A stretch of 64,000 nucleotides of DNA from Amblyomma americanum. Lineage: Eukaryota; Arthropoda; Arachnida; Ixodida; Ixodidae. Positions 3,200-59,866 of this stretch are shown here, piece after piece. The DNA is taken from the NCBI RefSeq assembly GCF_052857255.1, contig NC_135506.1, positions 73,979,056-74,043,055 on the forward strand, given 5' to 3'. A program made the position numbers and the translations under genes. Under the pieces are notes generated by a model that did not search any database, had not been told where the DNA came from, and saw only the letters and a program-made list of their open reading frames with translations. How positions within the stretch are numbered: the stretch's first letter is position 1; each line of letters begins with the position of its first letter.

Positions 3200-5930
3200 G
3201 GTATATTTGAGCGAAGAAACAATTTCACTAATAATCCTTCATTGATAAACGCCTGAAATTGAAAAAAAGAAAACCATCCTCTCTGCATCTTGTTTTCGGT
3301 GACTGCTGGCTTTCTTGATGTATCTCATAACGAGGCTCTCGGTTTTGCCTTCTGTTGTCTGCTCAAAACAAATGCAGTTTCGTTAAAGTACGTTGCAAGG
3401 GAAGCAATAGCGGTGACGTGACGCGCGGCTGAAAGAAGAAATACAGTAAATGGGGAGCAAAACTTAATCTTGGATACCGCTTTCTAGTCCTCAAAAACTC
3501 AGAGCCAACGCGAATTGATCTTGGATGGGAAATCGTGTTGTCTTCAATAAGACATGTCTCAGGCCAGCAGATCTCTGTCGAAAAGACATCATTTCAGAGC
3601 CCGCGGGAGCCGAAGCGATTGAAGACACGGACACAAGCTTAAACAAAATGGTAAGTTTGAGAGGAGCTAATAAATAAAAAAAATGAGTGTCAGTTCGAAA
3701 ATACAGCATACCCGTTCTGTTGCTTTCTTTTTCTTTATTTGTTGCGCACGCAGTTCACCGATATTGAAGCTGCAGCATTAAATATACACGTTGCCAACTG
3801 ATTGTTACCTTCACGGCTTCTCTGGTTTATTTTCCAAAGTGGGCGCTAAAGATACTTAGCAGTTAGGTGTGACGGTCACTGTACATAAAGACTGCTTTTA
3901 GAGAAGAAATACTTCTTGCGCTTTGCTCCCGTAGCAATGCCATAAAGCTTTTTGTTTTCCAAACCATTTTCAGGACAATTATTGAGCATTGAATTTTGGT
4001 CGTAGTAATGAACTACGGAAAGTTTTGATAAATATCCTTGCGACCGACGTACTAAGATAAAGTATCCCATTCCCGAGAACAACACCGAGAAATGTTGACG
4101 TCCTCGCGCCGACAAAACGCTCATCATTTGATGCACAAGCACAGCCAGAAACTCCATTCATTACACTTATGAAGTCTTGTTTCTCTTTTGTTTTAAAGCA
4201 TGGTTCGAACCGAGGATAATAGATTCCATCGATTGTCAGACATTGGTTCCGACGCTACTGCGAGGTATTCAGTGGGGGCTTCGCTCTTTCACATAAAAGA
4301 TGAGAAATTAATAAAAAAACACGAAACACGCGAAATGTGTGCTGCCCTGATACAGTTTCATACACACGTCACAGTCTTCTTGGGGTTTGAGGGGCCATAT
4401 TTTAGTCGTCGGGCAAACATCATTTCCATAAGGAGGCGATTCAGGATATTTCCTTCATCTGAGATACGGGTACAAGCTAGGAAGTCTAATATATAGTCGA
4501 TAGCCACTAGTCGGAACCTTGTACGTGCCTTTAGGGTAGAGATAATGCATTGTGAAGGGCATGGTATTTTTGCCGCTAATATTTGGAGTCGTTTAGAGGG
4601 CCGCGAATTTTGAGTGGGTGGCTGTATTCAAGAATAGTGCGGCCGTTGATCCTTAGATTGATTCGACCTTGAGAGGCTGCTACCACGGCCAATGAATCAG
4701 TCTGCCGTCCTCTTAGTGATGAAAGTGCTAATATTTTACTGAAGGTGCTTCTTTTTATCAGAATAGTTCGTGTCTGGCTTTTTGTTATTCCAAAATACTA
4801 TTTTGGCTCCATTATTAGAAAAGTTTTTTCACACCTCTTTTACTTCATTTATTATTCAATTAATTATATATGCACTGGTCCACTTGCTTGTCATTTTATT
4901 GTCATTTGACTGTTTCCATCGTATGGAAATGCAGACCGCCCTTTTAGAGCTAAATTTAAACAAAGACATTACAGTTGTCTTTTTGAGATGCGCAAACTAT
5001 CCTTAACTTCTGGTGCGTGCAAAAGAAATTATAAAACGTTTCCTTTATTTAAATGACAAAAGGAAAGAATGGCCATTGTTCTTCTCATTTTATTCCAGTG
5101 TCAAAGTGTAGCAATTACTGCATAACACAAGAATAATCGACTATCCACATGAAATGCACTGTAAAACTCGCACTTTTGTTCTCAGGTGGAACACTGTCGT
5201 TCCTAATGGAGCAGGGGTATGGAAGGAACGCCGGCCTGTGTACTTGTATCGAAGTCAAATGGCCGTCATTCTATAAACCTGATCACTGCGGTAGTCGTTC
5301 TGGTGAGTTCTGCGCCTTACAGCCTCTGTTAGAAAGCGAAAAGAAACAAACAAAAAATAGGTACCCGAAAATGTTCCGTCTCCCTGAAACGAGGACAGTC
5401 GTGTCGGCAAAACGTTTCTTTGTTAGCTTTTGTTTACCCACCAGCGGGTTTTTTGAGTGATGCATAGTGCCTGTTGATTTTATTAGAGATTGATTCTCAT
5501 CATTGTATTTAGCCGCCTACGTCGCAGTATTGCTTGAAAATGTTCTTTGTTCACAGAGAAACTTGCTATTGCCGAATTATGCTCCTATTACACACCGCAT
5601 CCCACAGAAATGACACAGTTGCATATGTGGCAACTACATGCTTTGGAGCTGTGTCTTTTGTGAATGAGTCGTCGTTAGTAATGATTTATGTAAGTTTTAC
5701 ACTCAGGCACTTTTTATTATTTTTATTTTTGGAGAGGTGGCACTCATAACACGTTTACGTTGCCATCTTTATGAAAATTATAATTGAATTTGAAATGTGC
5801 GGTTTAGTACACCGATGCAACACATGTACTACGAGGGAGGCCGTAGTGCAGGACTCTCGAATAATTTACACCACTTGTGTTTGTGGTGCTCTCGAGTGCT
5901 CTGGTATTGCACAGCACAGATGCGTTCTTT
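3200..5930. other. No gene recognised (2.7 kb)
   Basis: This is anonymous AT-rich DNA. The open frames are short (60-103 codons) and share no motif with known families. A very decayed LINE relic may lie at 4430-4700 on the minus strand, but it is too degenerate to call. Confidence 0.5.
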
Positions 5931-26894: not shown

Positions 26895-28277
26895 CCCCAG
26901 AATTTCCCCAGACCCCAAGATTGTGTTCCACCCGGGCGGTGGTCTCGACCTGCGGCCCGTGAACCGCGGAGCTCTTCTCCAGCTTCTCTGAACTGGCGCA
27001 GAGATCGACTGCGCGCAAGCGCGGAGCCAGGACAAGCTCCGAATCAACCCTTACAATAACTCGTTCACCGTGAGTACGCCTTCGGAAGCCCGAATGAAAC
27101 GATATGTCCACCTTTAAGAACTCAGGCTCCACGACCAACAGTATCCGATGAAGACATACGTCGCGGCCCCCGACAACGCCGTCAAAGGGATACTCTACAA
27201 CGCGGTATATAACCAGACTCAAGAAAATGTTTTCTCCGACCTCGTGGTGCTGAACCCCAGCCGCCACTTCACGATCGCCGACGCCCACCAACTAGGCCGC
27301 AACAAGTCTATCTTGGTCACCTTTATTGACACCACGGAAGTTCCAAGACAGCTCGTCTTCTACGGCACCCTCTACACGTGTCATCCCTTCAAGGCGAAAG
27401 TTGAAGCATGCTTCAACTGCCGCAAGCCAGGCCATCGTGTTGATGTGTGTCCGAAAGAGCGTACCGACCTTTGTCCTCACTGCGGTGCGTCTCATCCCAT
27501 CAAAGAAACGCCGGATTGCACTCCAAAATGTATCGTGTGTAATGAAACGCACTTCAGAGGGACGCGCAAGTGCAACGTCCCCGGCGAGTCCGCCACCGTC
27601 TTCGCCATCCAAGAGTCCCAGGGCGTCGCGATGCCGCCAACGCTCCACCTGCCGCCCAAGAACTGGTCGCAGTCGCAGCCGTTCCGTGTCCTTCCCACCA
27701 TTTCCAGGCCAAAGGGTCCAGGACTCTTCGAAATAGGTGAGCTGGGGGCCGCAGTCTTCCTTGCTCGAGAAGCTAAAAGCACAATTGTCCTCTCAGAGTC
27801 GCGAAATTGCTGCTCTAAAAGAGCAACTGCAAAACCTTTTAAAGCGTGAACACTCCCCACCGACATTGCTCCCAGTTGTGCAAACCCCGACACATCCAAA
27901 CGTGCCCCGTTCCTCCTCCGTCTCTTCCCTCTCCGCCTCCTCCTCGCGCGCCACGTCACCGGCACGTGGGCTCCCCGCTAAACGCAAGTCCGCCGATGAC
28001 GCCAATTCTCCCTCCCAACCAGTAACTGACAACATTGTACACCAGGTGACGTCTTTCATGCAAGATTTTGAGAAACGCACGATGGCGACGCTAAACACGT
28101 TCCGCTCCGAAACTAAACCGTGGATGAAGAACATTTCTGACCACGTGGCGGCGCTCGAAACCCGCCAGAGCAATCTGGAGGCCAATGTCGCACAATTCCA
28201 AACTAAGATTCACGAGCCTCTCAACAGAGGTCATACGCCACCCCCTGCGTCTTGCGCTCTCTCCGTCATTTCCCAAC

Positions 28278-31200
28278 ATGGCTGCGACACCCCAACGCAT
28301 TAAGGTGTGGCAGTGGAACTCCAGGGGTTTTCGCTCAAAGCGAGATGACCTGCAGCTTTACTTAGAAACCTTCTCTAGCCGCGACGCCCCCGCGGTCATT
28401 GCGCTTCACGAAACTTTGACGTCAGTAAAGGTCCGTAACTACACCCCATACGAACCTTCTACCCAGCCACAGACCAGGGTCGCTACGCTCGTACATCGCA
28501 ATCTCACTTCGATAGAGCACCCATTAGAGGTAGACGACATAGACGGTCTCCTGCTGGAGCTTCTCCCTCCCACAAGCAAGTCACTTAGCCTCTTCATCCT
28601 CAATCTCTATAGCCCCCCAAAAGGTCCTCCTGCCCCTCTTCTTGTGGCTTTCCGCAAGACGCTCTCAATCAGTTCAAACAACTCCCTGTGGGTAGTGGGC
28701 GACTTTAACGCCAATCACAGCATTTGTGGGTACGGCAAGAACTGTCGCAAAGGCACCTCCCTGTGGTCATTCATTCAGAATGAAGGACTCTCCCTTTTGA
28801 ATGACACCACGATCTCCATCCATATTGGTTTCATTGTTCAGCACAACACCATCCCAGACCTCACAATTAGCAAACACATTCGCGACAGCCGATGGATCAA
28901 CACGACACACTCTTTTGGCAGCGACCATTATATCATTTCCACAGAGGTCAATATCTCTTCCATTACCTCGCCAGGACGACGAGGGACACAGGTGGTGGAT
29001 TGGGACGAATTCCACCAACTTCGGCGCCTAACCCCGAACACCATCACGGACCTCTCTGAAAGGACCGCCAGTCTCAACCGCGATGTCGCCCGCGCTACCT
29101 CCACCATTCTCGAACATCAGGACACGTCGGCTGCTGACAGCCGGCTCGTCCACATGTGGGAAGCACATGCCAGCCTGCAAAGGCGCTGGCTCAATCAAAA
29201 GCACAATCGGCCCCTCAAACGCCGCATCTCTCATCTCGTACGCGAGATGAGACGCTACCTGTCCCATCAACAATGGGGACAGGTCTGCGATCGCCTGAGT
29301 GGCAATTTAGGCCTCAAAGACACCTGGTCCCTCCTCAGATATCTCCTGGACCCGGGACACACGAAGGCCACCCAACGCAAGCATGTCACACGCATCTTGC
29401 ACCAGCTCCCCCTCTCAGACGATGCACTCCTCCAATCTTTCAAAGATCAATATCTGACCACCCCCTCCCACCCCCTCCCCCCGTACACGGGAGACCCCAA
29501 CCCGGAACTCGACGCGGACATCTCTCCGGCGGTGGTTCGGGCGGCCATGCACAAACTTCGGACCACGACCGCCCCCGGCGCTGACAGAGTCACCAACAAG
29601 GCGCTCCGCAATCTCGACGGCCAGTCCGTGGAGGCTGTTGCAGATTTGTTCAATCACTGCTGGCGAACGGGAACCCTGCCTTCGCAGTGGACTCATGCCC
29701 GCATAACTTTCATCCCCAATCCAGGAAAGCCTCTTGAGATAAGGAATCTCCGTCCCATTTCCCTTACGTCTTGCATCGGCAAGCTCTTTGGGCACGTCCT
29801 CCTTGGTCGCCTCCAGGAACACATGGGCGCCAACCTCATCTTCCCCCCAACGATGGTTGGTTTCCGTTCCCACCCCTCCACCCAAGGTATCATGCTTCAG
29901 CTCTCAGAAGACGTCCTCCACCCCCGAAACACAAGGCGCACGCGCGCGGTCCTGGCCCTGGATCTAAAACAGGCATTCGACAATGTACATCATTCGGCCA
30001 TCTTGGACGGCCTGTCGTCCCAACACGTCGGCACTCGTACCCATCAGTACATCTCAGCCTTCCTCCGCCACCGCACAGCTGAAATCACTTTTGGCTCACT
30101 CTCCTCCCCTGTTTTCACTCTCGGTAGCCGAGGTACCCCTCAGGGATCGGTACTCTCCTCGCTTCTATTTAATATAACTCTCATCCCAATGGCAAAGGCT
30201 CTTTCAGACATTCCCGCCCTCTCGCACTCTTTATATGCCGACGACATCACCCTGTGGACCTCCACGGGTAATGTCCGCAACATTGAAGAGACACTACAAG
30301 CGGGGGCAGATATGGTGACCTCCTATGCCCATCAGGTCGGCCTTGCATGCTCTCCTACAAAATCGGAACTTCTGGTCCTTCGCTCCCCTCAGGAAAGACT
30401 GGACAAAACTCCCCCACCTGGCATCGATGTCACCATTGATGCCACCCGCATACCAGAGGTAGACAAAGTACGCATCCTGGGGATGGTTCTCTAGTACAAT
30501 GACAAGAACACTGCCACAATCACCAAGCTCACTGCTACTGTTAAACAAACCGTTCGCCTCATCAGACGAATCGCTAACAAACACTGAGGCATGCGTGAAC
30601 ACGACCTTTCGTCCAGGCTTTCGTCCTTTGCCGGGTAGTATACTCCCTGCCCTATCTCTTCCTCTCCCGAGTAGAGGAGAATAAATTCAACTGCCTCATC
30701 CGTCAGGCGTACAAGACGGCCCTCAACCTCCCCCAGCACACGTCGAATGAACGCCTTCTTAAGATGGGCGTACACAACACCTTCGCCGAGCTCACCGAGG
30801 CCCATCGATCTGCCCAACTTGATCGGCTCTCCTCCACCCTAGCCGGCCGTCACATTCTTGACGCCATTGGCCTACACCCCCCTGGCTATTATACCCACAC
30901 CTTCTCCCTCCATCACCGCACACGGCACCTCATCACCATTCACCCGCTCCCCAAGAACATGCATCCCGAGCATCACGCGGCTCGTCGTGCTGCTCGGGTT
31001 GCAGCCCTACACAAACACTACGGCGCACAGCCGGAGTGCGTCTACGTCGACGCAGGCTCTTACACCTCTTCTTCTGTCTTTGCCCTGGCGGTAGTGTCCA
31101 ATTCGTACACCCCTATTACAGCAGGCACTGTCATTGCCTCCACTCCGGCGGAAGCAGAGGAGGCAGCCGTAGCCTTAGCCATCGCTACTACATCAGCGAC

Positions 31201-33003: not shown

Positions 33004-33247
33004 GTAGTTTGGTTTGGTTTATGGGGGTTTAACGTCCCAAAGCGACTCAGGCTATGAGAGACGCCGTAGTGAAGGGCTCCAGGAATTTCGACCACCTGGG
33101 GTTATTTTACGCGCACTGACATCGCACAGTACACGGGCCTCTAGAATTTCGCCTCCATCGAAATTCGACCGTCGCGGCCAGGATCGAACCCGCGTTTTTC
33201 GGGCCGGCAACCGAGCGCCATAACCACTCAGCCACCGCGGCGGCCGT
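33004..33247 (-). mobile_element. Ruka-like SINE, full length, best preserved
   Basis: Minus orientation. The head starts near 33245 with CCGCGGTGGCTGAGTGGTTA (box A region). The B box GGTTCGATCC is intact at about 33181-33190. The body has GGTCGAATTTCGATGGAGGC, then GTACTGTGCGATGTCAGTGC, CCAGGTGGTCGAAATT, CACTACGGCGTCTCTCATAG and CCTGAGTCGCTTTGGGACGT, with a tail AAACCAAACCAAAC. Imperfect flanking repeats TGTCAAATAA (32994-33003) and TGTCAAACAA (33248-33257) look like the target-site duplication. The RNA polymerase III promoter is internal. Confidence 0.93.
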
Positions 33248-33259
33248 TGTCAAACAACT

Positions 33260-35255
33260 GCTTCCTGTCGTACATGGCATTTTCCTAATTAGTGCACTAG
33301 CATTTGAGTATGCTGCATCAACGCAGAGGGTGGGAACTGTAGGCGATTCGTTTCTCTCTGTACCTCGCGCTTCCTCTGTTACATTTAATCACTCAAACGA
33401 AGTCACCCGCCGTAGCCACCCTGTTACTCGCTGCCAAATGGGAGGGGAGAAGGAAGCTGATGCAGCGGTTCACCTGGTAATTTCTTGTGGCGAACAGGTT
33501 TAAAAATTCTAGCACTACTTCACAAGCGTATACAAAGCATAAGCAAGTGGCTCTAACCACAAGTGACGAGCACGCTTTGAAATATTCACACACGCGAGTT
33601 GGATTCGAAGGCAGCAACGCTTCGCGCATTGTGAGCATGCTGCGGTTTTGCCTCTACTCCACGTCGCTGGCGACGCAGCCCACTAATGTTTACGAACACG
33701 ATGCATGTGTATATGGCGAGCATGAAGCCGCCTATGTTTCACAAAAACAACACTTAGTTATTTCAAAAGCATTCTTCAATAGTGACTTATTTACTTTTCA
33801 CGTTGAAAACGAGTGCATGACTCTGGAGGCTTTGGAAGAAGCTGCCAGACATAGATCTACCGGCCCCCATAGGCCCTTTCCAAACAGTCATAAAAAAGTA
33901 TAGAAACGAACTACAAACATTCATATTTGTGAATAAGCATCACTTATAAGAGTAAAATTTTATAGCTGTAAAAAAACAAAAGTTAACCCTACCAACCGAC
34001 ACCAACTTCGTCATAAGGAAATGCGCAGCCTGTATGGGTAAGAGCATGCACACGTAGATTTGTTAAAGACGAAGATAAAAATCAAGGTTTCCACGATATT
34101 CTCGTTAACTATATTGCAGTTGCTTGCAGCCTGTGCAGACTGCTTCAGTATTCAAAATCTGCATGTCGTCTTTTTGTGTTTTCTATTTGGAAAAAAACGT
34201 TTGGAAAAAAAAATTGGAGGGACCGTATTTTCTGCGGAAAAACTTCAATTCTCATGGGGTTTCGGGTGTGTATATGTACCGAGCTAAGCTCAGCCCAACG
34301 AATGCTTGATGCACAATTGGCTTCCTTAGACAAAGGTGTTCGCAAGTACTTCCACGCAAGATTGCTGTCTAGGTTTTCTTCTCATTGGTTATCGCTATCC
34401 AGTGTGCGCTTTAACTATGATAATCACGTCGTTACCAGTCTTCACATAATTATTGAGATTCATGCCTATCGTGACCACAAGTGACCTCTCTGAACAGTGA
34501 TTAGAAGAAAACCTGGAGTCCAATTTCGATCCCCTCCCACTAAGCCTCTCGGTAGTGGGATTTGCCAACCTCTGACTAGATGGAAGACAACATGCCTTAG
34601 TGACTAAGCGTAACACCTGCTCGACATCTAATGCTAAGCTATAACGAAGTTATCTTTATCTTTATTCCCCTGCATCTTCAATATCATATTGCTTTCAAAG
34701 TTAACTCACTCCAGCACCAGAGAATACGTATAAAAGCATTATGTTAATTGTGCTGTTATACGCTCGAAATTTTCTCCTCCGGAAGAGAACCACTTGATCA
34801 ACCACTTAATAAGCACCGGAATATCAATCAATTCACCAAGCCAACAGCAAGCATAGCCATGATAAACCAGTCATGGTACCGCTGGTTCTTCCCTAAATGT
34901 CAATATGTAAAATCCCTTAGAAGGAACATGCTAGTGTACCTCAACTGCAGCAGCTTATCACCCTCGGTTCCTCCTATATAGACATCTTACTGACTTGGCA
35001 AAGCTTTAACAAGCGCAGTCAAGTACACAATGCCTTTTGTATCATGAATATTTACTAACCTCTGCAGCCGCAAAAGAAGGGTCATATTAGAGTGAGAGAG
35101 AGGCAAAGAAACTAAAAAATTGAACTTCAAGCTGTGTAACAAGAGACACTAAACAACAAATGGCAGTAACAAATGTTAGTCTTGCGATGGCTAGGGCTCA
35201 GCATAATGGCATTGCGCTTGCTCTTGTGTTCTATTCTCAATGGGTTATTTATTGA
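33260..35255. other. No gene recognised (2.0 kb)
   Basis: Anonymous AT-rich DNA. The 138-codon frame at 33487-33903 (+) is the longest here. It has no signal peptide, membrane segment or motif I know, and I take it as chance. Confidence 0.4.
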
Positions 35256-35302
35256 AAACTAAACATTTTGACAGATTTGCCTGTCTGGTTGGGTTTGAAG
35301 AC

Positions 35303-36010
35303 ATAATAAACTGCAATCTCCACCAAAAATTTTAACTTAACCCAAAAGTAAAAGTCGGGTCTCCAGGTTGCGCACAAGCCCACAAACACTGTTGCTCTTT
35401 GCCTACCTGTTCTCAAAGACCGGCCGCCGAGGGAAAGAGCCCAAGGCATTGTCTACCAAATTCCGTTCTCCGACTGCGATGCAAGCTACATCGGCGAAAC
35501 CAAAAATTTCAAAGAAAGAATTCTGCAACATAAAAACGACGTCCGCAAATTCGCAAGAGAGCGCAATCTAGTAGCCGAACATTCCGAGGACTGCGACCAT
35601 AGAATCAACTTCGAAGAAACCCGCATCCTCGGAACCGAAACAAATTACCACAAAATGCTCCTTCTGGAATCCTGGCATATCCAAACCGCTCCGAACAATA
35701 TCAACCGCCCAATGGAAACCTGCCCCCAGTATACGCCCAGGGACTTCACTCTTCAATGCAACGAAAAAAAGTCGCCATTCAGCACCTCCCTGCAGTGCGC
35801 CAGCGTGACTAACAGCCTAAACCCCCTCCCCCTCCCCCGCGCCTTTCGCGACACAGCTGTCATTTTTTTTTCACCCCCCACCCTCCCCTCCATACTTAAA
35901 AGACGCTAGCTACTGCCCTCAGTCACCCCTGATGAAGGAGCCGAGTGGGCTTCGAAACGTTGGGTTAAAGTTAAAATTTTTTTTTGAGATTGCAGTTTAT
36001 TATAATGGTT
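35303..36010 (+). mobile_element. Penelope-like retroelement fragment (GIY-YIG end)
   Basis: The frame from about 35409 gives LKDRPPRERAQGIVYQIPF, then CDASYIGETKNFKERILQHK, a GIY-YIG endonuclease with its GIVY and YIG pair, the arginine in FKERI and the later glutamate in LLLESWHI (about 35660-35690). This is the C-terminal domain of Penelope-like elements, which follows the RT. A pyrimidine-rich 3' UTR runs to about 35925, then CTGATGA, a six-bp stem and GAAACGT at 35929-35960, then GGGTTAAAGTTAAAA and GAGATTGCAGTTTATTAT. The same terminus occurs inverted at 35303-35343, upstream of the coding part. The RT itself is missing. The rest of the frame is readable to about 35757. Confidence 0.85.
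35409..35757 (+). pseudogene. GIY-YIG endonuclease domain of a Penelope-like ORF
   Basis: About 115 codons, open throughout. It contains GIVYQIPFSDCDASYIGET, a basic KNFKERILQHKNDVRKF helix, an HSEDCDHRINFEE segment of the type seen between YIG and the catalytic glutamate, and LLLESWHIQT. Function in the family is nicking of DNA for target-primed reverse transcription. No ATG or RT lies upstream in frame, so it is a 5'-truncated remnant, though the domain itself looks undamaged. Confidence 0.82.
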
Positions 36011-39000
36011 ATTTATATATTTATTTGAGATGCAAATTGATACCTTGGGGGAAGGGGGAGGGATGTACGTACGATTTGCGGATCTTGCAACGGCCATTAT
36101 GTTACTTTCTTTGAGGAGAGTGTTATTTGTTTCTCTTGTTCTTGAGCTGCCATCTGAAAGTCAGCGATCCTTCAGGTACCCAAACAACGATCTCTTCAGC
36201 AAATATGAGTGGCTTGGCTGAAATCCTGTTGAAATCTTTTTGATGCTCTTCATTCCTCAGAGCGCGTGCACCTGGTCTGACAATGCTTGCACCCATTAGA
36301 AAATCTTTGGACCCGGTGCGCTACTGGGATACTATACACGGCGTCTTACACAAGAAAAGCGGATCGCCTGTAACACTGGATAATCTCTGGGGTTAGAGAA
36401 GTTCCTGTAACCTCTTTTCCCACAAAAAGTAGGACTCACCGCGGTGGACCAGAGGCATTCGCATTCGCTGGCGCCGCAAAGGTAGAGGGATGGAATCCCA
36501 TCTGCGGAGGCGGCAACATTGCGAAACTCTTTGAGCGCTGTGCGCTGTAAGCGCGCGTTAAAGAGCCCCACAAAGTCGAAACTCACCCGGCGAGCTACAG
36601 ACTATTTCGAGCCGTGTTCACGTTTTTTCAAGACAAATTTTATGTGTCCTATCATTACGTAATAATGCCTTACTTCTGAGCCAATTAAGGTATTAGTAAA
36701 CAAAATTAGTAAACAAAGTAAATACTAACATGGACAGCTCACTCGTAAAGCAAACTCAGTGCTTGTAATCCAAGAAAGGAAAATGTCTTTATTCATAGTA
36801 GATAGATCAGGCCATCAAAGTCGTCGCGAGAAATCGTTATTGAAAAACACCACCGCGCTGTGATTGGGGAGCATAGTAAAAGGTGCTGAGTATTGTGGGA
36901 GCAATATTTTTCGAGCCACGTTCTTCTTCAGGATCCCTGCGAATCCTTATGGGTTGGGCTGTAGAGAGTGAGTGTGCGTCAACGTTTCTTTAAGTTATTT
37001 CACTTTAAACAATAGGGACAACGCTTCGGGCTGCTGTCCAAAAAAATTGTGAGCCGAGGGCCACGCATTTCGCGAACTTTGTCCTGCCGTGTCAATTGCA
37101 TTTGATAGGAATTAACTGCCTCTTTCTGAGCCGGGCAGTATCCGCTGCCGGATATAGCTGCGTGCACAAAGACGGGCTTAACGACCGTGCACACAAAGCC
37201 ATCTCAATAATAGAAGGGAAGGCCAACGGACAGAGACAGAGCAGGTTTCAGGCGAACCAAAGAGATTTGCACTTGGCTTTCGACCTTTCCAGGATTCTTT
37301 ACTACCTCGCTCTTCCTTACTCGGAGGATGCTTTGAAGGAAATGGTTTCCTGAGAAACGTCACATAGAACAATTTAACGCAATGACGGTTCTTTGAACCC
37401 GTCCAGGCCTGTCGAGTCTCCAATGCTTATATATCCACCGACCAGGAAGCCAGAACAAATTAAAATGGCTAGAAGCCACGTCCCGGGGCTTTTTTCTAAA
37501 CGATGGCCTGGAAATGGTTTCTGGTGTTAAAATTCAGGCTACGCATTCCGCAGTATATATCAATAAAGAAAAGCATATTGGATGGAGGGTTTGAATACCG
37601 TTTTGACTCTGACTTTTGGCTTCAGGAGTAACGGTTTATTTCTGGAGTGTAATCGCGTGGTGTTTTGACGCTTCGGTGGCTGCCATTGTGTTTTGCTCCT
37701 GCTTGAACGAACTTTTTTTTTAATGACACCCTGATCATGCACCAAGCCTCTTCGTCTGCCATTTTGACTGACCATATCAGCAAAAATAGAGAAGTTCTCT
37801 GCATGTGTTGCTCCCCAAATGACGTTTCCTAAAAAAAAAAACGACGTGACGGAGTAATGAGCGATAATTAGTTACAGAGCGTTAGCATATTCTAGCGATT
37901 CAGTGAAGCACGCGGGGTTGCCGCACGCACCGGCGTCAAGTGAGAAGACGCAGTCAAATTCGTCAGCGTCCATCAGTCACGGATGAAATCGATTAAGTGG
38001 AGCGCTGACTCACACCTCACGCCTACCTGCTTTGGGCGGGCGAACGCAATCGCTCATTTCTGACCTTCACCTCGCTATCCTCTTCTACCTGCCCTTTTTA
38101 TTTCCGCTGGCCGCAGTTCGGACGCTAAAGATGTTATCTAGCAATAAACCATTTGTAGAAATCTGTCAGTAAACATCTCCGTAAGGCTTGTTTTCCAGCC
38201 AGAAGGTCTCGTTCCAAGACCAGACTCTGGCATTCCTCGTGTAAACGAAAAGAGTCAAGTTCAACCTTCTGAGTAGACTCAGGAATGTCGCCAGTTTACT
38301 TCAACATGGCCCCGAGACACCTGTCAAAATAGTAAAATGGTACAGTACTGAAAAGTGGATTGCAGACAACTTTCTGTAGGACTGGAGTAGAGGCTAGGCA
38401 GGAAATAAAAGGAAATGGGCCATTGTACCTGTGCCAGCAGAAGTTACCTGCTTTATACTAAATTTTCTAACAATTTTCCGCTGAACAACACCGTCGGTAC
38501 AACTGCCTCTCATAACCCCCCCCCCCCCCTCCCGCTTCACACCCCTAGCCAGAACAAAATGCAAACCATTGCACACAGCACTGTGACAAACGACAGGTTC
38601 CCTTCTTTCTGTCCTGTCTAGACTGCTTTAGGTAGAGCGCGACCACCCGGTGTTTTCATTCCCTCGAAGAATGTGAGTGTGTCGTCTGGATTCGAGACCT
38701 TTTGGTTGAAAAGATGCGTTGCAGAGAAGACGACTTCCATGTTTCCGCAAATGGTGAATTGCCTCGGCCGGTAACATTTTTCCTTCCGTTTTATTTTATT
38801 TCTTTTTTTAGTGAACCACTAAGAAGTGCTGCTGCCGCTACAGTCTGGCCGTGACCGGGTAAACATTCTTCGTCTGGTGGCTGCTGGAGGAAAAGTTGCA
38901 GGAAAAATGTCCATTCCTTGCGTCAAATGTCCACACTTTTCTTATTTGTGATCATGCTTTGTGATTATACAACGTCACGTGTTTTAGATGGCCTCCATTT

Positions 39001-43767: not shown

Positions 43768-44067
43768 TAGGTTTCTGGGGAAAGGAAATGATGCAGTATC
43801 TGTCTCACATCGGCGGACAGCAGAACCGCGCCTAAGGGAAGAGATAAAGGAGGAAGTGAAAGAAGAAAGGAAGAAAGAGGTGCCGTAGTGGAGGGCTCCG
43901 GAATAATTTCGACCATCTGGGGATCTTTAACGTGCACTGACATCGCACTGCACACGGGAGCCTATGCGTTTCTCCTCCATCGAAACGCAGCCGCCGCGGT
44001 CGGGTTCGAACCCGGGAACTCCGGATCAGTAGACAAGAGCTCTAACTACTGAGCCACAGCTGCGGGG
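43768..44067 (-). mobile_element. SINE of the (ATT)-tailed subfamily, full length
   Basis: Minus orientation. The head at 44067 has CCGCAGCTGTGGCTCAGTAG, and the B box GGTTCGAACCC is a perfect palindromic form at about 44003-44013. The body has CGTTTCGATGGAGGAGAAAC, then GTGCGATGTCAGTGCACGTT, AAGATCCCCAGATGG, a pyrimidine-rich CCTTTCTTCTTTCACTTCCT tract and GCGCGGTTCTGCTG, ending CCCCAGAAACC at about 43770. It is longer than the Ruka-type copies (300 against about 240 bp) and has a different 3' third. Confidence 0.9.
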
Positions 44068-53649: not shown

Positions 53650-56505
53650 TCCGATGATTATATCAGGTGACGTTCGCTGCCCAGGCGGCGGTGCCTACAC
53701 CTCATTCTTACATTGTAACACGCAATGGGCTAGGAACAAGCATGACGAACTGATGTTGTTGCTTGCTGACTTTGGTTTCAAATTTGACATCATCATGCTC
53801 AGAGAAACGTGGTACGAATCTGAAGAGGAAGTACTTTGCCTGTCTGGTTTTCGAACCTTTTTTTTTAAATAGATCACATCGCCGTGGTGGGGGTGTTTTG
53901 CAACTTGCATCCGAGCACATGTCATGCAGCTTACACACCGAGTTTTCGATAGTAACGCCAGATTATGAAGCCTTATCCTTACAGTATCAGAAATCTGTAT
54001 TTATTGTGCTATACCGCCCACCGGATGGTAAACTGGACGCATTTTTTGCTTTTCTTGAGAGCGTACTGAGTTTTGTGTTATTAAATAGCCTGCACATTAC
54101 AATTGGGGTGACTGTAACATTAACCTATTGCAAAATACAATTCAGTCACAAGAATTATAGGTAATGTTGGATTCATTTGGTTGCAAAAACGTTATAAATG
54201 AGCCAACACGCATCAGCCACTCTTCTGAAAGTCTTCTGGATTTATTCATAACTAACAGCATTGAAGACACGGTACATTCTGGTGTTGTCTCAGCAGCCGT
54301 GAGTGACCACTTACCTATTTATATGTTTTGTAAACACGGTGAGATTATGAAAAAAAGTGTGAATCATTCTGAGTCATTCATTGTTCAAGAGATAAATCCG
54401 AGAACGTTAAATAAATTTAGGGAAGAAATTCAAAAAGTAAATTGGAACCCTGTCTTAGAATGTATAGACGCTAACAAAGCCTACAACATTCTCATTTCTA
54501 TCCTTACTGCAGCCTACAGAACCTGCTTTAGATTCAAAATGATAAAAAAATCCAAGAAGATACGTAAGCCCTGGCTTACGAATAATTGTCTCAACATGAT
54601 ATGAAAAAAATATGCGTTGTATTCTGTATTTTTGCAAACAAAAAACTATGCAGACCTTCTTGCTTATAAAAAACACAGAAACTTCGTGACAAAGTTTTTA
54701 CGGAATGCTAAAAACTGCTATTTTAAAAACCTCTTGGGGAAACCGGGTGCTCGTGGTAAAGAAATCTGGCGCGAAATGAACAAACTATTACAAAGGGGAA
54801 GCCGTCAAAATGAAGAACTTGAAATAATACTTAATAATGAAGCATTTAAAGGACAAAATTTGGCGAACAAGTTTAATGAATATTTCATAAATCTTGTTGA
54901 TAGCGTCCACGATGAAACTGCCACGAGCTTCCTGAACAAGCAGATTACAAACAGTGCTTTCTTTGAGCCGGCATCTCCTGAGGAAATATTCTCAGTATTT
55001 TTGTCACTGAAAAATAGTAAAGCACGTGATATAGATGGACTTCAGATAGAACCTATCAAGTTTGTACTCGAACTCCTGGTACCAGTTTTCACCCATCTGT
55101 TTAATATTTGTTTGTCTACAGGTGTTTTTTAGACAAAATGAAGCTAGCAAAGGTTTCGGTGTTGTACAAGTCTGGAGACAGAAATGACTTATCCAATTAC
55201 CGACCAGTAGCAATATTACCTGTAATATCAAAAGGTTTGGAAAAAGTTATTTGTAATAGAGTGACAACGTTTTGTAATAAGTTTTCTATTATAACGCCTC
55301 AGCAGTATGGTTTTCGAAAGCAGGTGTCAACCGAACTGGCTCTACTGACGCAAAAGGAGTACATACTTGATGGATTTGAAGAAAGGAAGGTAACCCTTGG
55401 TATATTTGTGGATTTTTTGAAGGCGTTCGACAGGATTAATCATGCTACTTTACTATGTAAATTAACACGTTATGGATTTCGGTGAAAAACTCTAAAATTA
55501 CTAAAATCATATCTAGAACAAAGAAAACAGTGCGTCGCTCTTACCGGTGAATATTCATCTTTGCTTACTGTGAAAGCAGGGGTTCCGCAGGGCAGTATAC
55601 TGGGACCGATCTTATTCAATCTTTATATTAATGATTTAATAAGCATTAGTGATCAAGCATATTTTGTTATCTATGCAGACGACACTAGCATTTTCTTTCA
55701 GTCCAAGGAGATTAAGGAACTCGCAAGTTTAGCCAATACCACCCTCGATAGGTTGTCTCAATGGAGCACAGTAAATTCCTTAAAAATAAACGCAGCGAAA
55801 ACCAAATGTATTTTATTTGCGCCGGTGCAAAAGCAAATAAATCGTAGCTTGGATATCTATTTTGACAATTCTAAAATAGAGCTCGAGAAACAGGTTAAAA
55901 CACTAGGAGTCATTTTTAGCGAAAATTTAACTTGGGACGCTCATGTTGGCCTTGTAGCTAAAAAGTTGGCGAGGGCATACGGAATGATTTGTAGATTGCG
56001 ACAGGTGATTCCACCGAAACTCAAGCTTCTTGTATATAATGCCTTATTTCTCCCGCATATAAACTACTGTGACCTTGTTTGGGGGACAACATCTGCTACA
56101 CACATCCACAAATTACTTTTAATACAGAAAAAAGCTATCCGCCATATTGCAAATGTCCCATACGATTCCCATACGCGGGATTTATTTCAATCATTTAATG
56201 TCTTGACTGTCACGCATGCATACATATTTAACCTGTTCTTAAAATACAAGAGCAGCTTAAAACACACAAATGAGCATTTTCTTCGAATGAGCCGCCTTAA
56301 AAAATCCGTGCAGCTGCCATACAGCGTAAGGCAAAGAGATACATGGGATTTGCCCTTTTCCCGAACCAACAACGGTTTTAACAGGTTGCAATATCGTGTA
56401 CCATTCCTGCTAAATAGCCTTGAAAGGTTACATATAGACCCGAACACCATGACTAGAAAACAATGGAAAAAAGTTTTAGTGACGAACGACGGTATCCAAA
56501 TTTAA
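53650..56505 (+). pseudogene. CR1-like ORF2 (endonuclease and RT), few breaks
   Basis: The endonuclease begins LHCNTQWARNKHDELMLLL and has RETWYESEE, RGGGVLQLASEH, VLYRPPDGK, SLLDLFITN and SDHLPI. The expected GDFN box is altered (GVTVT near 54105). RT has YRPVAILPVISKGLEKVI, QYGFRKQVST, LGIFVDFLKAFDRINHA, GVPQGSILGPILFNLYIND (55585-55641) and YADDTSIFF (55672-55698), so the catalytic aspartates remain. The C-terminus from VKTLGVIFSENLTW to LVTNDGIQI is intact in one 314-codon frame (55561-56505). Breaks: frameshifts in T runs near 53860 and 55125, a frameshift near 54150, and TGA stops at 54602 and 55483. Both T-run shifts could be sequencing errors. Confidence 0.87.
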
Positions 56506-56753
56506 GAAAAAAGTACAGAAGAAAAATGTTGTAATGTAAACGTTTTCTCTTATTTTGGAGCATGCTTGTTTTTGTATTAGGTTCGTACGATTCTTTTATT
56601 TGTCTGTACGTCCTCAGTGCAAATGGTCTAACTTAGACCAGAAACTCGTTTTTTTTTCCTTTCCCTTTTGCTGCATATGTATCCAAATATGTTGGCCTGC
56701 ACGTGAGATGCTGTTGTACGCGAATACATTTGTATTGCTTTATCTGTGAGATG

Positions 56754-56756
<3 letters not shown>
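53650..56756 (+). mobile_element. CR1-like LINE, body with endonuclease and RT, lightly damaged
   Basis: The ORF2 region runs to a natural stop at 56503-56505, then about 250 bp of 3' UTR lead into a TA microsatellite at 56757. There is no RNase H, which with the motif set points to the CR1/L2 side of non-LTR elements. ORF1 is absent, so the copy is 5' truncated. The missing 3' end with a (GATTT)n tail may be the segment at 58992-59156, beyond the palindrome. Confidence 0.85.

Positions 56757-56845
<89 letters not shown>
56757..56845. repeat. (TA)n microsatellite, left of the palindrome
   Basis: About 44 TA units. A 43-bp unique segment (56846-56888) separates it from the palindrome arm. Confidence 0.97.
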
Positions 56846-56847
<2 letters not shown>

Positions 56848-56888
56848 TAGAAAGATAAACGTATTTGGTTGCTAGAGGCAAAAATTCA

Positions 56889-57893
56889 AAGTTGAAAACG
56901 CTTCATTTAGCCATAGATTTATTTTGAGTCGACGTTTCGGACAGAGCCTGTCCTTTCTCAAGACTGAAGTTACAGGGGTCTTCTTCCTCTTCTTAAGGAG
57001 TTGGCACTGGCACACATGTACGACACATGAACAAAAGAAACAAACGGTGGCAAAGAATACTAGAAAAGATACAGATAGAAAGGGAAAAAAGGGGGAACAA
57101 ATAAAAAAGAAAAACGTGTTGTACCCCGCCGCCCACCCCGAAGCCGCGGGGAGCCGACCCCGGACGAGGGAAACAAAAAAAAGGAAAACACGGAGCGGGC
57201 GAGGATAATGGCTACCCATCAAGGCAACAGAGCGGCGGCGTGTAAGGTGGACAGGAGCAGACGGTGGCGGGATCGCCCTACACACAAAAGTTAAAGACGC
57301 GTGCACTCGCGTGCCCCGTACACAAAGAGTAAACAAATAAACAGAATAAAATGCAGACAGGGTCGGAGCTTCCGTCATCTTGAACCACTCCGGCAGCCAG
57401 AGCCAAGGCCGAATCAGAGGCGCCGTGAGCTTAACTAAACACACGTGCACTGTGCATGAAAACACCCAGACACACAGCAGTAAAACATCCGAGCTCATGC
57501 CAGTGTCGTGTGGCGGCTAAATGACAATGGCGGGAGCATTTAGGCGAGTAAGGTGTACAGAAACAGACGGTGGCGGAATTGTCCAACATATATAAATTGG
57601 AGATGCTTGCACTCGCGTGACCTGGCCAGAAAAAGTAAACAAATAAACAAAATAAAATGCAGACAGGACAGGAGACTTCCGTCATCTGGAACCATTTCCG
57701 CAGCCCGAGTCAAGGTAGAATCAGGGCGCCGTGAGCTTAACTACACACACGTGCACTGTGCCTGAAAACACCCACAAAAGAAAAAAAGTGGAAAAACATC
57801 CGAGTTCGGCCAAGTGTGGTGTGGGAGGTAAATGTGAATGGCGTGAGCAATTAGGCAAGGGTTCTTCAATTGTACCCCGTCGTCAAGGTAATC
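56889..57893 (-). repeat. Left arm of a giant palindrome (about 1005 bp)
   Basis: Pairs with 57915-58919 as reverse complement: position p pairs with 115808 minus p along the whole length, so there is no net insertion or deletion. I found one base difference (57543 against 58265). Read outward (minus strand), it carries a near-tandem pair of 306-bp units, then a CT-rich segment, then a six-bp stem GGACAG/CTGTCC followed by GAAACGTCGAC at the outer end. A 208-codon frame spans it but looks non-coding. I infer a Penelope-type terminal segment. Confidence 0.95.
57244..57860. repeat. Two 306-bp tandem units inside the left arm
   Basis: GACGGTGGCGG occurs at 57260-57270 and 57566-57576, and GAGCTTAACTA at 57427 and 57733, both 306 bp apart. 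The two units are clearly diverged from each other (roughly 75-80 percent by eye), far more than the two palindrome arms. The mirror copy lies at about 57948-58564. So the tandem duplication is old and the inversion is recent. Confidence 0.85.
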
Positions 57894-57914
57894 GAACTGG
57901 GAAGATAGGGGCAG

Positions 57915-58916
57915 GATTACCTTGACGACGGGGTACAATTGAAGAACCCTTGCCTAATTGCTCACGCCATTCACATTTACCTCCCACACCACACTTGGCC
58001 GAACTCGGATGTTTTTCCACTTTTTTTCTTTTGTGGGTGTTTTCAGGCACAGTGCACGTGTGTGTAGTTAAGCTCACGGCGCCCTGATTCTACCTTGACT
58101 CGGGCTGCGGAAATGGTTCCAGATGACGGAAGTCTCCTGTCCTGTCTGCATTTTATTTTGTTTATTTGTTTACTTTTTCTGGCCAGGTCACGCGAGTGCA
58201 AGCATCTCCAATTTATATATGTTGGACAATTCCGCCACCGTCTGTTTCTGTACACCTTACTCGCTTAAATGCTCCCGCCATTGTCATTTAGCCGCCACAC
58301 GACACTGGCATGAGCTCGGATGTTTTACTGCTGTGTGTCTGGGTGTTTTCATGCACAGTGCACGTGTGTTTAGTTAAGCTCACGGCGCCTCTGATTCGGC
58401 CTTGGCTCTGGCTGCCGGAGTGGTTCAAGATGACGGAAGCTCCGACCCTGTCTGCATTTTATTCTGTTTATTTGTTTACTCTTTGTGTACGGGGCACGCG
58501 AGTGCACGCGTCTTTAACTTTTGTGTGTAGGGCGATCCCGCCACCGTCTGCTCCTGTCCACCTTACACGCCGCCGCTCTGTTGCCTTGATGGGTAGCCAT
58601 TATCCTCGCCCGCTCCGTGTTTTCCTTTTTTTTGTTTCCCTCGTCCGGGGTCGGCTCCCCGCGGCTTCGGGGTGGGCGGCGGGGTACAACACGTTTTTCT
58701 TTTTTATTTGTTCCCCCTTTTTTCCCTTTCTATCTGTATCTTTTCTAGTATTCTTTGCCACCGTTTGTTTCTTTTGTTCATGTGTCGTACATGTGTGCCA
58801 GTGCCAACTCCTTAAGAAGAGGAAGAAGACCCCTGTAACTTCAGTCTTGAGAAAGGACAGGCTCTGTCCGAAACGTCGACTCAAAATAAATCTATGGCTA
58901 AATGAAGCGTTTTCAA

Positions 58917-58919
<3 letters not shown>
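57915..58919 (+). repeat. Right arm of a giant palindrome (about 1005 bp)
   Basis: Reverse complement of 56889-57893 across a 21-bp spacer (57894-57914). Read on the plus strand it ends GGACAGGCTCTGTCCGAAAC at 58855-58874, then GTCGACTCAAAATAAA, and runs directly into a TA microsatellite. The 234-codon frame at 58310-59014 is the same frame as on the left arm with a poly-Tyr-Ile extension from the TA repeat, which argues against it being a gene. Confidence 0.95.

Positions 58920-58991
<72 letters not shown>
58918..58991. repeat. (TA)n microsatellite, right of the palindrome
   Basis: About 36 TA units, directly joined to the right arm with no unique bases between. Confidence 0.97.
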
Positions 58992-58994
<3 letters not shown>

Positions 58995-59156
58995 AAAACT
59001 TGCATTTAACATGACTGAAAAACCTTCATGCTGCCAATCAAACAGGAGCAAGGGCCTTGTCAAGCTGCTTGTAGTAGCTTTTTTGCTCTTGTCCCAGCAT
59101 TCCTTTGTTACACGCGGAAGAATGCTGAATAAAGATTTGATTTGATTTGATTTGAC
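58992..59156 (+). mobile_element. CR1-like LINE 3' UTR with (GATTT)n tail
   Basis: A segment ending GCTGAATAAAGATTTGATTT and then repeats of GATTT to about 59154, a typical CR1/jockey 3' tail with a polyadenylation-like signal. The upstream part has TTGCTCTTGTCCCAGCATTC. I infer that it is the displaced 3' end of the element at 53650-56756, because that copy lacks a tail and has the same orientation. Confidence 0.65.
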
Positions 59157-59159
59157 GCT

Positions 59160-59866
59160 TGCGGTAGGTTTTTCCTGATTCCATGACTTACTGCCGCCGC
59201 CATATGACCGAAGTCCTATTCTCTGGATTCAAAATAAAGCAGAAATGCAGCGAGCGTAATGTTTCACCCGCGAAATAATACCTCCGGGCACCTTGTGCAT
59301 GATTGTTTCGAACAAAAGCCTTCAGCTGAATATAGCTCTTGAAACTTTCGTTTCACAGAAGCAAAGCAGCCAGAGGAAACAATAAAAGCACAAGAAATTC
59401 AGTACCACCTCCTGCCGTCACTGTGCCATTAGTATTCATGGAATATGCAAAGGCTCTTTGTTCGCCGAGCAGATGTCCAGCCCTGCGCACCTGTATTCGC
59501 GATGCTAACCTAGAAGAAACGTCGAAGTGTGCGTGGATAGTCCTTTCTGTTTACGATAGCGAAAAAAAGAGCTGGTGGCACTGCATTCAGATTATGCCCT
59601 GCGACCTCTGTTCTAGGCCTAGACACTGATGTCAGTATACGAAGGAGAAGGCTGTTTATATTGTATCGAGAGCAAAAATTTTAACGAGCTTTCAGAGCAA
59701 ACATCTTCATCTTTCGAAGCTTAGAGGCAGCTGCATGAGGACAGAGCGCAGGACTAGCGCAAAATTTCGCTTGTGTAGTTGATATTTGCTGTTGGTCTAT
59801 GCGAGAGAAGGAAACAATAGAATCGGATTGCTGTCCAGTGTCAGCCTTTGGAGTTCAACCCTTAAA
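59160..59866. other. No gene recognised
   Basis: The frame at 59339-59629 (+, 96 codons) has several cysteines but no family pattern I know. Confidence 0.35.

What the first reader, a model, noticed from the sequence alone, without database searches (positions are those of the whole stretch)
56889..58919. Two-kilobase palindrome with nearly identical 1-kb arms and a 21-bp spacer
The arms pair base for base over about 1005 bp with no net indel and one difference found. Such palindromes are normally unstable, so this one is very young, is held by gene conversion, or is an artefact. Outside lie TA microsatellites, which are themselves cruciform-prone. If transcribed in either direction, the RNA folds into a duplex of about 1 kb, a plausible endogenous source of siRNA.
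Basis: partly seen in the sequence, partly recalled or inferred. Interest (0 to 1): 0.9.

Follow-up and report, generated by a model that had tools for sequence, protein, structure and literature searches.

The report
Penelope retroelement inserted as perfect palindrome
The two-kilobase palindrome is a recent jump of a Penelope-type retroelement in what appears to be a hard-tick genome, in which two shortened copies landed head to head in a TA microsatellite; similar insertions elsewhere in the genome show that this recurs and hint that one RNA was copied twice.

Summary
In detail: arms 56889-57893 and 57915-58919, 1005 bp, one mismatch, 21-bp spacer. It is best read as one insertion of a young Penelope-like element (PLE) into a (TA)n tract, made of two 5'-truncated copies in inverted orientation. 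Relatives in the same genome run to a 5351-bp unit with an RT + GIY-YIG-like ORF. The "spacer" is the inner end of the longer, left copy. Of 41 loci mapped, 19 are inverted pairs. In 19 of 19, one outer end carries the PLE "tail" and the partner does not. In 8 of 19 the two copies are truncated within 25 nt of each other, which none of 20,000 permutations reached. So near-perfect palindromes, arms about 0.4-5 kb, recur. Best explanation: reverse transcription primed from both target strands, each at its own start site on the RNA; matching ends suggest one RNA copied twice. Snap-back self-priming fits poorly. The siRNA idea is untested.

The parts
56758..56849 (.). left (TA)n tract, target site; the last 5 bases (56845-56849) read on the minus strand are TATAC, which may belong to the tail
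   Evidence: searches show TATAC then TA at the tailed end of most sampled copies
56850..56888 (-). PLE tail, the optional 3' extension, present on the left copy only
   Evidence: the same stretch ends the tailed copy of the mapped loci, which were found with queries that contain it
56850..57914 (-). left PLE copy (tailed, 5'-truncated), reading leftwards; covers reference unit about 4284-5351
56889..57893 (-). left arm of the palindrome
57894..57914 (-). 21-nt spacer = inner end of the left copy; precedes the arm sequence in the 20 loci fetched
57915..57917 (.). 3-nt overlap (GAT) at the junction that both copies can claim (microhomology)
57915..58919 (+). right arm = right PLE copy (tail-less, 5'-truncated), reference unit about 4307-5312
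56927..56965 (-). minimal-hammerhead-like two-stem motif near the 3' end of the left copy (core not canonical)
   Evidence: fold of the identical right-arm site
58843..58881 (+). same motif in the right copy
58919..58991 (.). right (TA)n tract, target site

Best explanation
The palindrome is a single insertion of a Penelope-like retroelement into a TA microsatellite. The element's nuclease cut both strands of the TA tract. Each cut end primed reverse transcription of element RNA, one starting at the outer (tail) start site and the other at the site about 30-45 nt further in, so two cDNAs grew toward each other from opposite sides. Both stopped early, at nearly the same place (reference about 4284 and 4307), before reaching the RT ORF, and their ends were joined at a 3-nt microhomology. 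The result is two head-to-head, outward-facing copies without the element's RT and endonuclease. Because the stop position is shared within a pair but differs between loci, the likely cause is that one 5'-shortened RNA molecule was copied twice. Shown: element identity, tail asymmetry, TA target, recurrence, shared stop positions. Inferred: two-sided priming and use of one RNA.
For: Relatives: query 56800-57900 gave 2087 first-look candidates in the own genome; 40 were scored, and the 41 long rows (two of them the window itself) are 97-100% identical. Unit of 5351 bp in direct tandem in L026, also in L023 and L025, with a 955-aa ORF carrying RVT_1 (2.6e-8) and GIY-YIG (0.0095, below cut-off). 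Pairs: 19 of 41 loci are inverted pairs; one copy tailed and partner tail-less in 19 of 19 (ends at reference 5296 in two, 5312-5320 in the rest). Shared stop: 8 of 19 within 25 nt, permutation mean 0.62, maximum 5, none of 20,000 reach 8; none reach the observed count at thresholds 10-160 either. In-pair mismatch lies below the mean to other loci in 17 of 19, and below the lowest in 12 of 19. Literature: a lizard PLE protein cuts and extends both strands of AT-rich DNA and starts at two adjacent RNA sites that define the tail (PMC11167929, main text read). An unrelated PLE in this window has the same layout: inverted tailed 3' end at 35303-35345, GIY-YIG ORF, tail-less 3' end at 36003.
Against: The loci were found with queries that contain the tail, so one tailed copy per locus is built in; how common tail-less ends are overall is unknown because the pattern searches did not complete. 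Eleven of 19 pairs are not symmetric. In two asymmetric pairs (L030, L031) the copies are no more alike than unrelated loci, so those need not share one RNA. In-pair distance does not differ significantly between symmetric and asymmetric pairs (p 0.13). The two snuggest junctions (L024, L043) sit on short natural inverted repeats, which allows other joining routes. The inner flank of some single copies is not TA (L027, L033, L041, L052). No reads, RNA data or empty site were available.
Confidence: 0.75

Rival explanations
1. Snap-back self-priming: one cDNA folded back on its own 3' end and was copied into a hairpin, which became the palindrome.
For: Proposed for inverted PLE structures in Adineta vaga (PMC3846280, passages). 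Four symmetric pairs (window, L014, L020, L036) have a clearly longer tailed copy and spacers of 21, 4, 5 and 21 nt that could be loops.
Against: The partner ends at the alternative start site (reference 5296-5320) in 8 of 8 symmetric pairs, where a DNA copy of the tailed strand has no reason to stop. In 9 of 19 pairs the tail-less copy reaches further 5' than the tailed one, which a copy of either strand cannot give; among symmetric pairs L019 is the clear case (13 nt), L043 is ambiguous because of a 13-nt overlap. Two spacers are 1 nt, too short for a loop.
Confidence: 0.12
2. An older inverted pair whose arms were kept identical by gene conversion.
For: Arms differ by 1 in 1005.
Against: Other copies of the family are about 99% alike, so the family itself is young. 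The tandem units inside each arm stay about 20% apart. Identity is expected at birth. Symmetric ends are not explained.
Confidence: 0.05
3. Assembly or read fold-back artefact.
For: Such artefacts make palindromes; N gaps lie at the inner end of two loci (L028, L042) and elsewhere in the fetched stretch of two more (L032, L039).
Against: Left and right flanks differ; only one end has the tail; arm limits coincide with element ends; the same build recurs on several chromosomes with different truncation points.
Confidence: 0.03
4. A dedicated hairpin-RNA locus that feeds small RNAs.
For: If transcribed through, the RNA would form a duplex of about 1 kb.
Against: It is one of many insertions of a repeat. 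The 214-aa ORF over an arm has no relative at E up to 1 among 201 candidates and no Pfam match at E up to 0.01. Conservation between species was not tested.
Confidence: 0.03

Closest known systems
Poseidon PLE of Anolis carolinensis (PAc), PMC11167929
   Same: AT-rich target; both strands cut and extended in vitro; two adjacent RT start sites that produce tailed and tail-less ends; hammerhead motif near the pLTR-ORF junction (main text read)
   Different: Here the target is a (TA)n microsatellite at the sampled loci; paired insertions with matched truncation are frequent; hammerhead core not canonical; ORF1 with GDSL-lipase-like domain
Penelope families Pen1-Pen6 of Adineta vaga, PMC3846280
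   Same: Inverted pLTR, optional 31-bp tail on one of the inverted ends, palindromes at the inverted junction, taste for simple AT-rich DNA (passages)
   Different: The palindromes whose length is given in the passages seen are 18 and 38 bp (long inverted structures of Pen3 are also mentioned, without such symmetry); here arms of about 0.4-5 kb pair almost perfectly
Minimal hammerhead ribozymes of PLEs and animal retrozymes (PMC6155905, PMC7229834; passages)
   Same: Two-stem layout lacking helix III, near the element end
   Different: Core of the arms is CUUGAGAAA, not CUGANGA; the motif is not repeated in each tandem unit as in retrozymes
Terminons / Athena PLEs with GDSL ORFs (PMC5408684; passages)
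   Same: RT of the Penelope class together with a GDSL-type ORF
   Different: Athena elements are endonuclease-deficient and telomere-associated; this element has a GIY-YIG-like C-terminus and sits in TA tracts

Membership tests
Penelope-like element (PLE) | Reverse transcriptase ORF in the full-length element | tested here: met
   RVT_1 2.6e-8 in the 955-aa ORF of L026; the window copy itself is truncated and lacks it; the RT's clade was not tested by a tree
Penelope-like element (PLE) | GIY-YIG endonuclease C-terminal to the RT in the same ORF | tested here: inconclusive
   Match at residues 850-931, E 0.0095, 16.7 bits, below the Pfam cut-off of 22.6; best match to the window's other GIY-YIG ORF is 20 residues at E 0.056; no PDB chain at E up to 0.1
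Penelope-like element (PLE) | Direct tandem / pseudo-LTR arrangement in full-length insertions | tested here: met
   Direct copies 5351 bp apart in L026, also L023 and L025
Penelope-like element (PLE) | 5' truncation and inverted copies, tail on one 3' end | tested here: met
   19 inverted pairs of 41 loci, tailed/tail-less in 19 of 19
Penelope-like element (PLE) | Insertion into AT-rich DNA | tested here: met
   TA tracts at the outer ends listed, inner tandem copies aside; the tract is short at L037 (right), L039 and L052
Penelope-like element (PLE) | Target-site duplication | not testable with these tools
   Hidden in (TA)n; the unrelated PLE at 35.3 kb has a 13/14-nt TSD-like pair, a score reached by 68 of 3974 random pairs
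Hammerhead ribozyme (active) | Stem I - core - stem II - GAAA - NUH layout | tested here: met
   3 distinct sites in the window (the PLE at 35.9 kb and both arm ends), 1 hit in 60 simulated windows; descriptor written after seeing the sequences; right-arm RNA folds as two stems
Hammerhead ribozyme (active) | Core CUGANGA | tested here: not met
   CUUGAGAAA in both arms; Rfam gives no hammerhead match in 56500-59300. Not filed as a working ribozyme
Animal (non-LTR) retrozyme | Tandem units of about 300 bp each carrying a type I hammerhead | tested here: not met
   Tandem units of about 310 bp exist, but the motif is found once per arm, outside them

The most novel reading that the evidence does not exclude
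This PLE routinely copies one RNA molecule twice, once from each cut target strand, each time from a different start site, so that near-perfect palindromes with arms of up to about 5 kb are a normal product of its insertion and not an accident.
Probability: 0.5. Interest if true: 0.75.

Novelty: new variant of a known kind. Interest (0 to 1): 0.6.

Why it matters
How Penelope-like elements complete an insertion is an open question; the 2024 in vitro study says that additional steps are yet to be validated (PMC11167929). This family supplies many young, readable insertions in which both ends, both start sites and the junction can be scored. If the symmetric class comes from one RNA copied twice, that is a specific and testable step. 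It also names a recurrent source of multi-kilobase, nearly perfect palindromes, which matter for genome stability, for assembly and, if transcribed, for double-stranded RNA.

Tried and rejected
Rfam found no hammerhead in the palindrome or at the 35-kb PLE; the low-scoring viral and miRNA matches lie on the TA repeats. Scans of viral contigs for the arm-end motif and for the GIY-YIG ORF gave nothing. Five exact pattern hits in bacterial genomes are near the number I would expect by chance (my estimate, about 2) and were not followed. The arm ORF has no protein relatives. Flank similarity inside the window gave no second copy of the host retrotransposon. The empty site and the frequency of tail-less ends could not be tested: those searches did not complete. 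Snap-back, gene conversion and artefact were considered and set aside for the reasons given. Rows dropped before the pair count: L032 (inverted internal piece without a 3' end; one search counts 20 pairs with it), L028 and L042 (N gaps at the inner end; L028 has a 33-nt inverted piece there). L006-L013 repeat loci fetched later and were not counted. A Mann-Whitney test of in-pair distance, symmetric against asymmetric, was not significant (p 0.13).

Sampling. The order was mostly that of the lists. L031 was taken out of order because the list showed it as a pair (it proved asymmetric), and regions of pairs visible in the list were cut to hold both copies. Some right arms were read only in part: L024 (inner 0.6 kb and outer end), L043, L046 and L053 (a stretch before the outer end not read).

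Full report
What was checked. TA tracts flank it at 56758-56849 and 58919-58991. The left side carries an extra stretch, 56850-56888, that the right side lacks. Each arm holds two tandem units of about 310 bp, 255 identities against 54 mismatches and 9 gap positions in the right arm. At the single arm mismatch the neighbouring unit agrees with the left arm, so the change probably happened in the right arm.

Host. The best named protein relatives of a retrotransposon ORF in the window (28128-30494) are from hard ticks: Rhipicephalus sanguineus and Dermacentor albipictus, both 59% identical, over 64% and 49% of the query (104 proteins listed, most unnamed, the best-scoring seven among them; one is named as a spirochaete MAG). 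The assembly has 2.56 Gb in 429 contigs. The host is therefore taken to be a hard tick; the species was not established.

First clue. Near both outer ends of the palindrome lies a two-stem motif of the minimal-hammerhead type that PLEs carry (PMC6155905 passages). A descriptor scan of both strands finds three distinct sites in the window: both arm ends and the 3' end of an unrelated PLE at 35.3-36.0 kb whose ORF has a GIY-YIG domain (Pfam 2.4e-5). Sixty simulated windows gave one hit; the descriptor was written after seeing the sequences. The distance from the motif's GAAA to the tail-less end is 49 nt in both elements (58870 to 58919; 35954 to 36003; positions). That second PLE shows the same layout: an inverted copy of its own 3' end at 35303-35345, 91% identical to 35960-36003, followed outward by about 50 nt of extra sequence and a TSD-like pair 35239-35252 / 36004-36016 (68 of 3974 random pairs score as well).

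Relatives in the same genome. After seven unanswered attempts, one search found the family in the own assembly: 2087 first-look candidates, 40 scored, 41 long rows of 97-100% identity (two of them the window). I fetched 40 regions and four short extensions. In the 20 loci the tailed copy runs on past the "spacer", in most of them into coding sequence; some loci are truncated short of it. L026 has two direct copies 5351 bp apart, the tandem form expected of a PLE. One unit holds a 955-aa ORF with RVT_1 (2.6e-8) and a GIY-YIG match (0.0095, below the curated cut-off), and upstream a 448-aa ORF with a GDSL-lipase-like match (2.6e-7, just below its cut-off). So the window's spacer is the inner end of the left copy, and the palindrome is a pair of 5'-truncated copies that stop short of the RT ORF (which ends at reference 4190).

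Census. Mapping the window and 40 loci on the L026 unit gives 19 inverted pairs, 16 single copies, 3 tandem loci (L023, L025, L026), one inverted internal piece (L032) and two loci with N gaps at the inner end (L028, L042). In 19 of 19 pairs one copy ends with the tail and its partner without it: at reference 5296 in L036 and L049, at 5312-5320 in the others. Because the queries contained the tail, one tailed copy per locus is guaranteed; the finding is that no partner is tailed. The base rate of tail-less ends is not known. Outer ends run into TA tracts; the inner flank of the single copies is TA in many but not in L027, L033, L041 and L052.

Matched truncation. In 8 of 19 pairs (window, L014, L019, L020, L024, L035, L036, L043) the two inner ends lie within 25 nt of each other on the reference, with spacers of 21, 4, 20, 5, 1, 19, 21 and 1 nt. 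Shuffling partners gives 0.62 on average, never 8 in 20,000; without the window 7 of 18, again never reached. Thresholds from 10 to 160 nt give the same answer. Arms of the symmetric pairs run from about 0.44 kb (L035) to about 4.9 kb (L024, whose right arm was read only at its inner 0.6 kb and its outer end, L054). The truncation point differs from locus to locus, so it is not a fixed stop in the RNA.

Same source. Within pairs, mismatches are 43 in 13,020 aligned positions for symmetric and 80 in 11,003 for asymmetric pairs (only the fetched part of L024, L043, L046 and L053 was compared). In-pair distance is below the mean to other loci in 17 of 19 and below the smallest in 12 of 19 (7 of 8 symmetric, 5 of 11 asymmetric). 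L030 and L031 are exceptions. The two classes do not differ significantly (p 0.13).

How it works. The lizard PLE protein PAc cuts and extends both strands of AT-rich DNA and starts copying at two adjacent internal sites; the stretch between them is the "tail" (PMC11167929, main text read). The pairs here fit two-sided target-primed reverse transcription, one cDNA per strand, one start site each. Snap-back self-priming, suggested for Adineta vaga (PMC3846280, passages), predicts that the second copy mirrors the first. Instead the partner ends at the other start site in 8 of 8 symmetric pairs, and the tail-less copy is the longer in 9 of 19 pairs, the tailed in 9, with one tie. Among symmetric pairs the tailed copy is clearly longer in four, the tail-less in one (L019), and three are ambiguous (L024, L035, L043), so snap-back is weakened rather than excluded for the symmetric class alone. 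Matched inner ends that vary between loci are best explained by one 5'-shortened RNA being copied twice. That last step is inference.

Limits. No reads, no RNA, no empty site, no second individual. The sample is 41 loci out of a family with more than a thousand first-look candidates and is enriched for copies resembling the window. The small-RNA proposal stays open. Papers searched for prior reports; none of the listings showed a title or abstract reporting kilobase-scale symmetric PLE palindromes or the structure of tick PLEs, but only open-licence papers are held and I read only the sections and passages named here.

Noticed in passing
35239-36016: A second, unrelated PLE insertion with a GIY-YIG ORF, a canonical-core hammerhead motif (CTGATGAA, 35925-35965), an inverted tailed copy of its 3' end and a TSD-like pair.
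   Followed up: partly
L026:4649-5992 (minus strand): ORF1 of the full-length PLE has a GDSL-lipase-like domain (2.6e-7, just below cut-off). GDSL ORFs are reported for Athena/Terminon PLEs and non-LTR elements (PMC5408684 passages); here it sits with an RT + GIY-YIG-like ORF.
   Followed up: partly
54605-56757 and 58992-59160: The palindrome may sit in the 3' UTR of a non-LTR retrotransposon: RT ORF on the left, and on the right, same strand, AATAAA followed by TTTGA repeats. Not proven, as no uninterrupted copy could be fetched.
   Followed up: partly
L028, L042 (inner ends): N gaps lie at the inner end of two copies, as if palindromes had broken the assembly there.
   Followed up: no
56889-57893 and 57915-58919: Two tandem units of about 310 bp inside each arm, about 80% alike, also present in the loci; origin unknown.
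   Followed up: partly
G000:C1:42.93-43.03 Mb: Four near-identical tailed copies lie within 100 kb, possibly a segmental duplication.
   Followed up: no
33170-33241 and 43992-44063: tRNA-like matches on the minus strand (Rfam), probably tRNA-derived SINEs (recalled, not tested).
   Followed up: no
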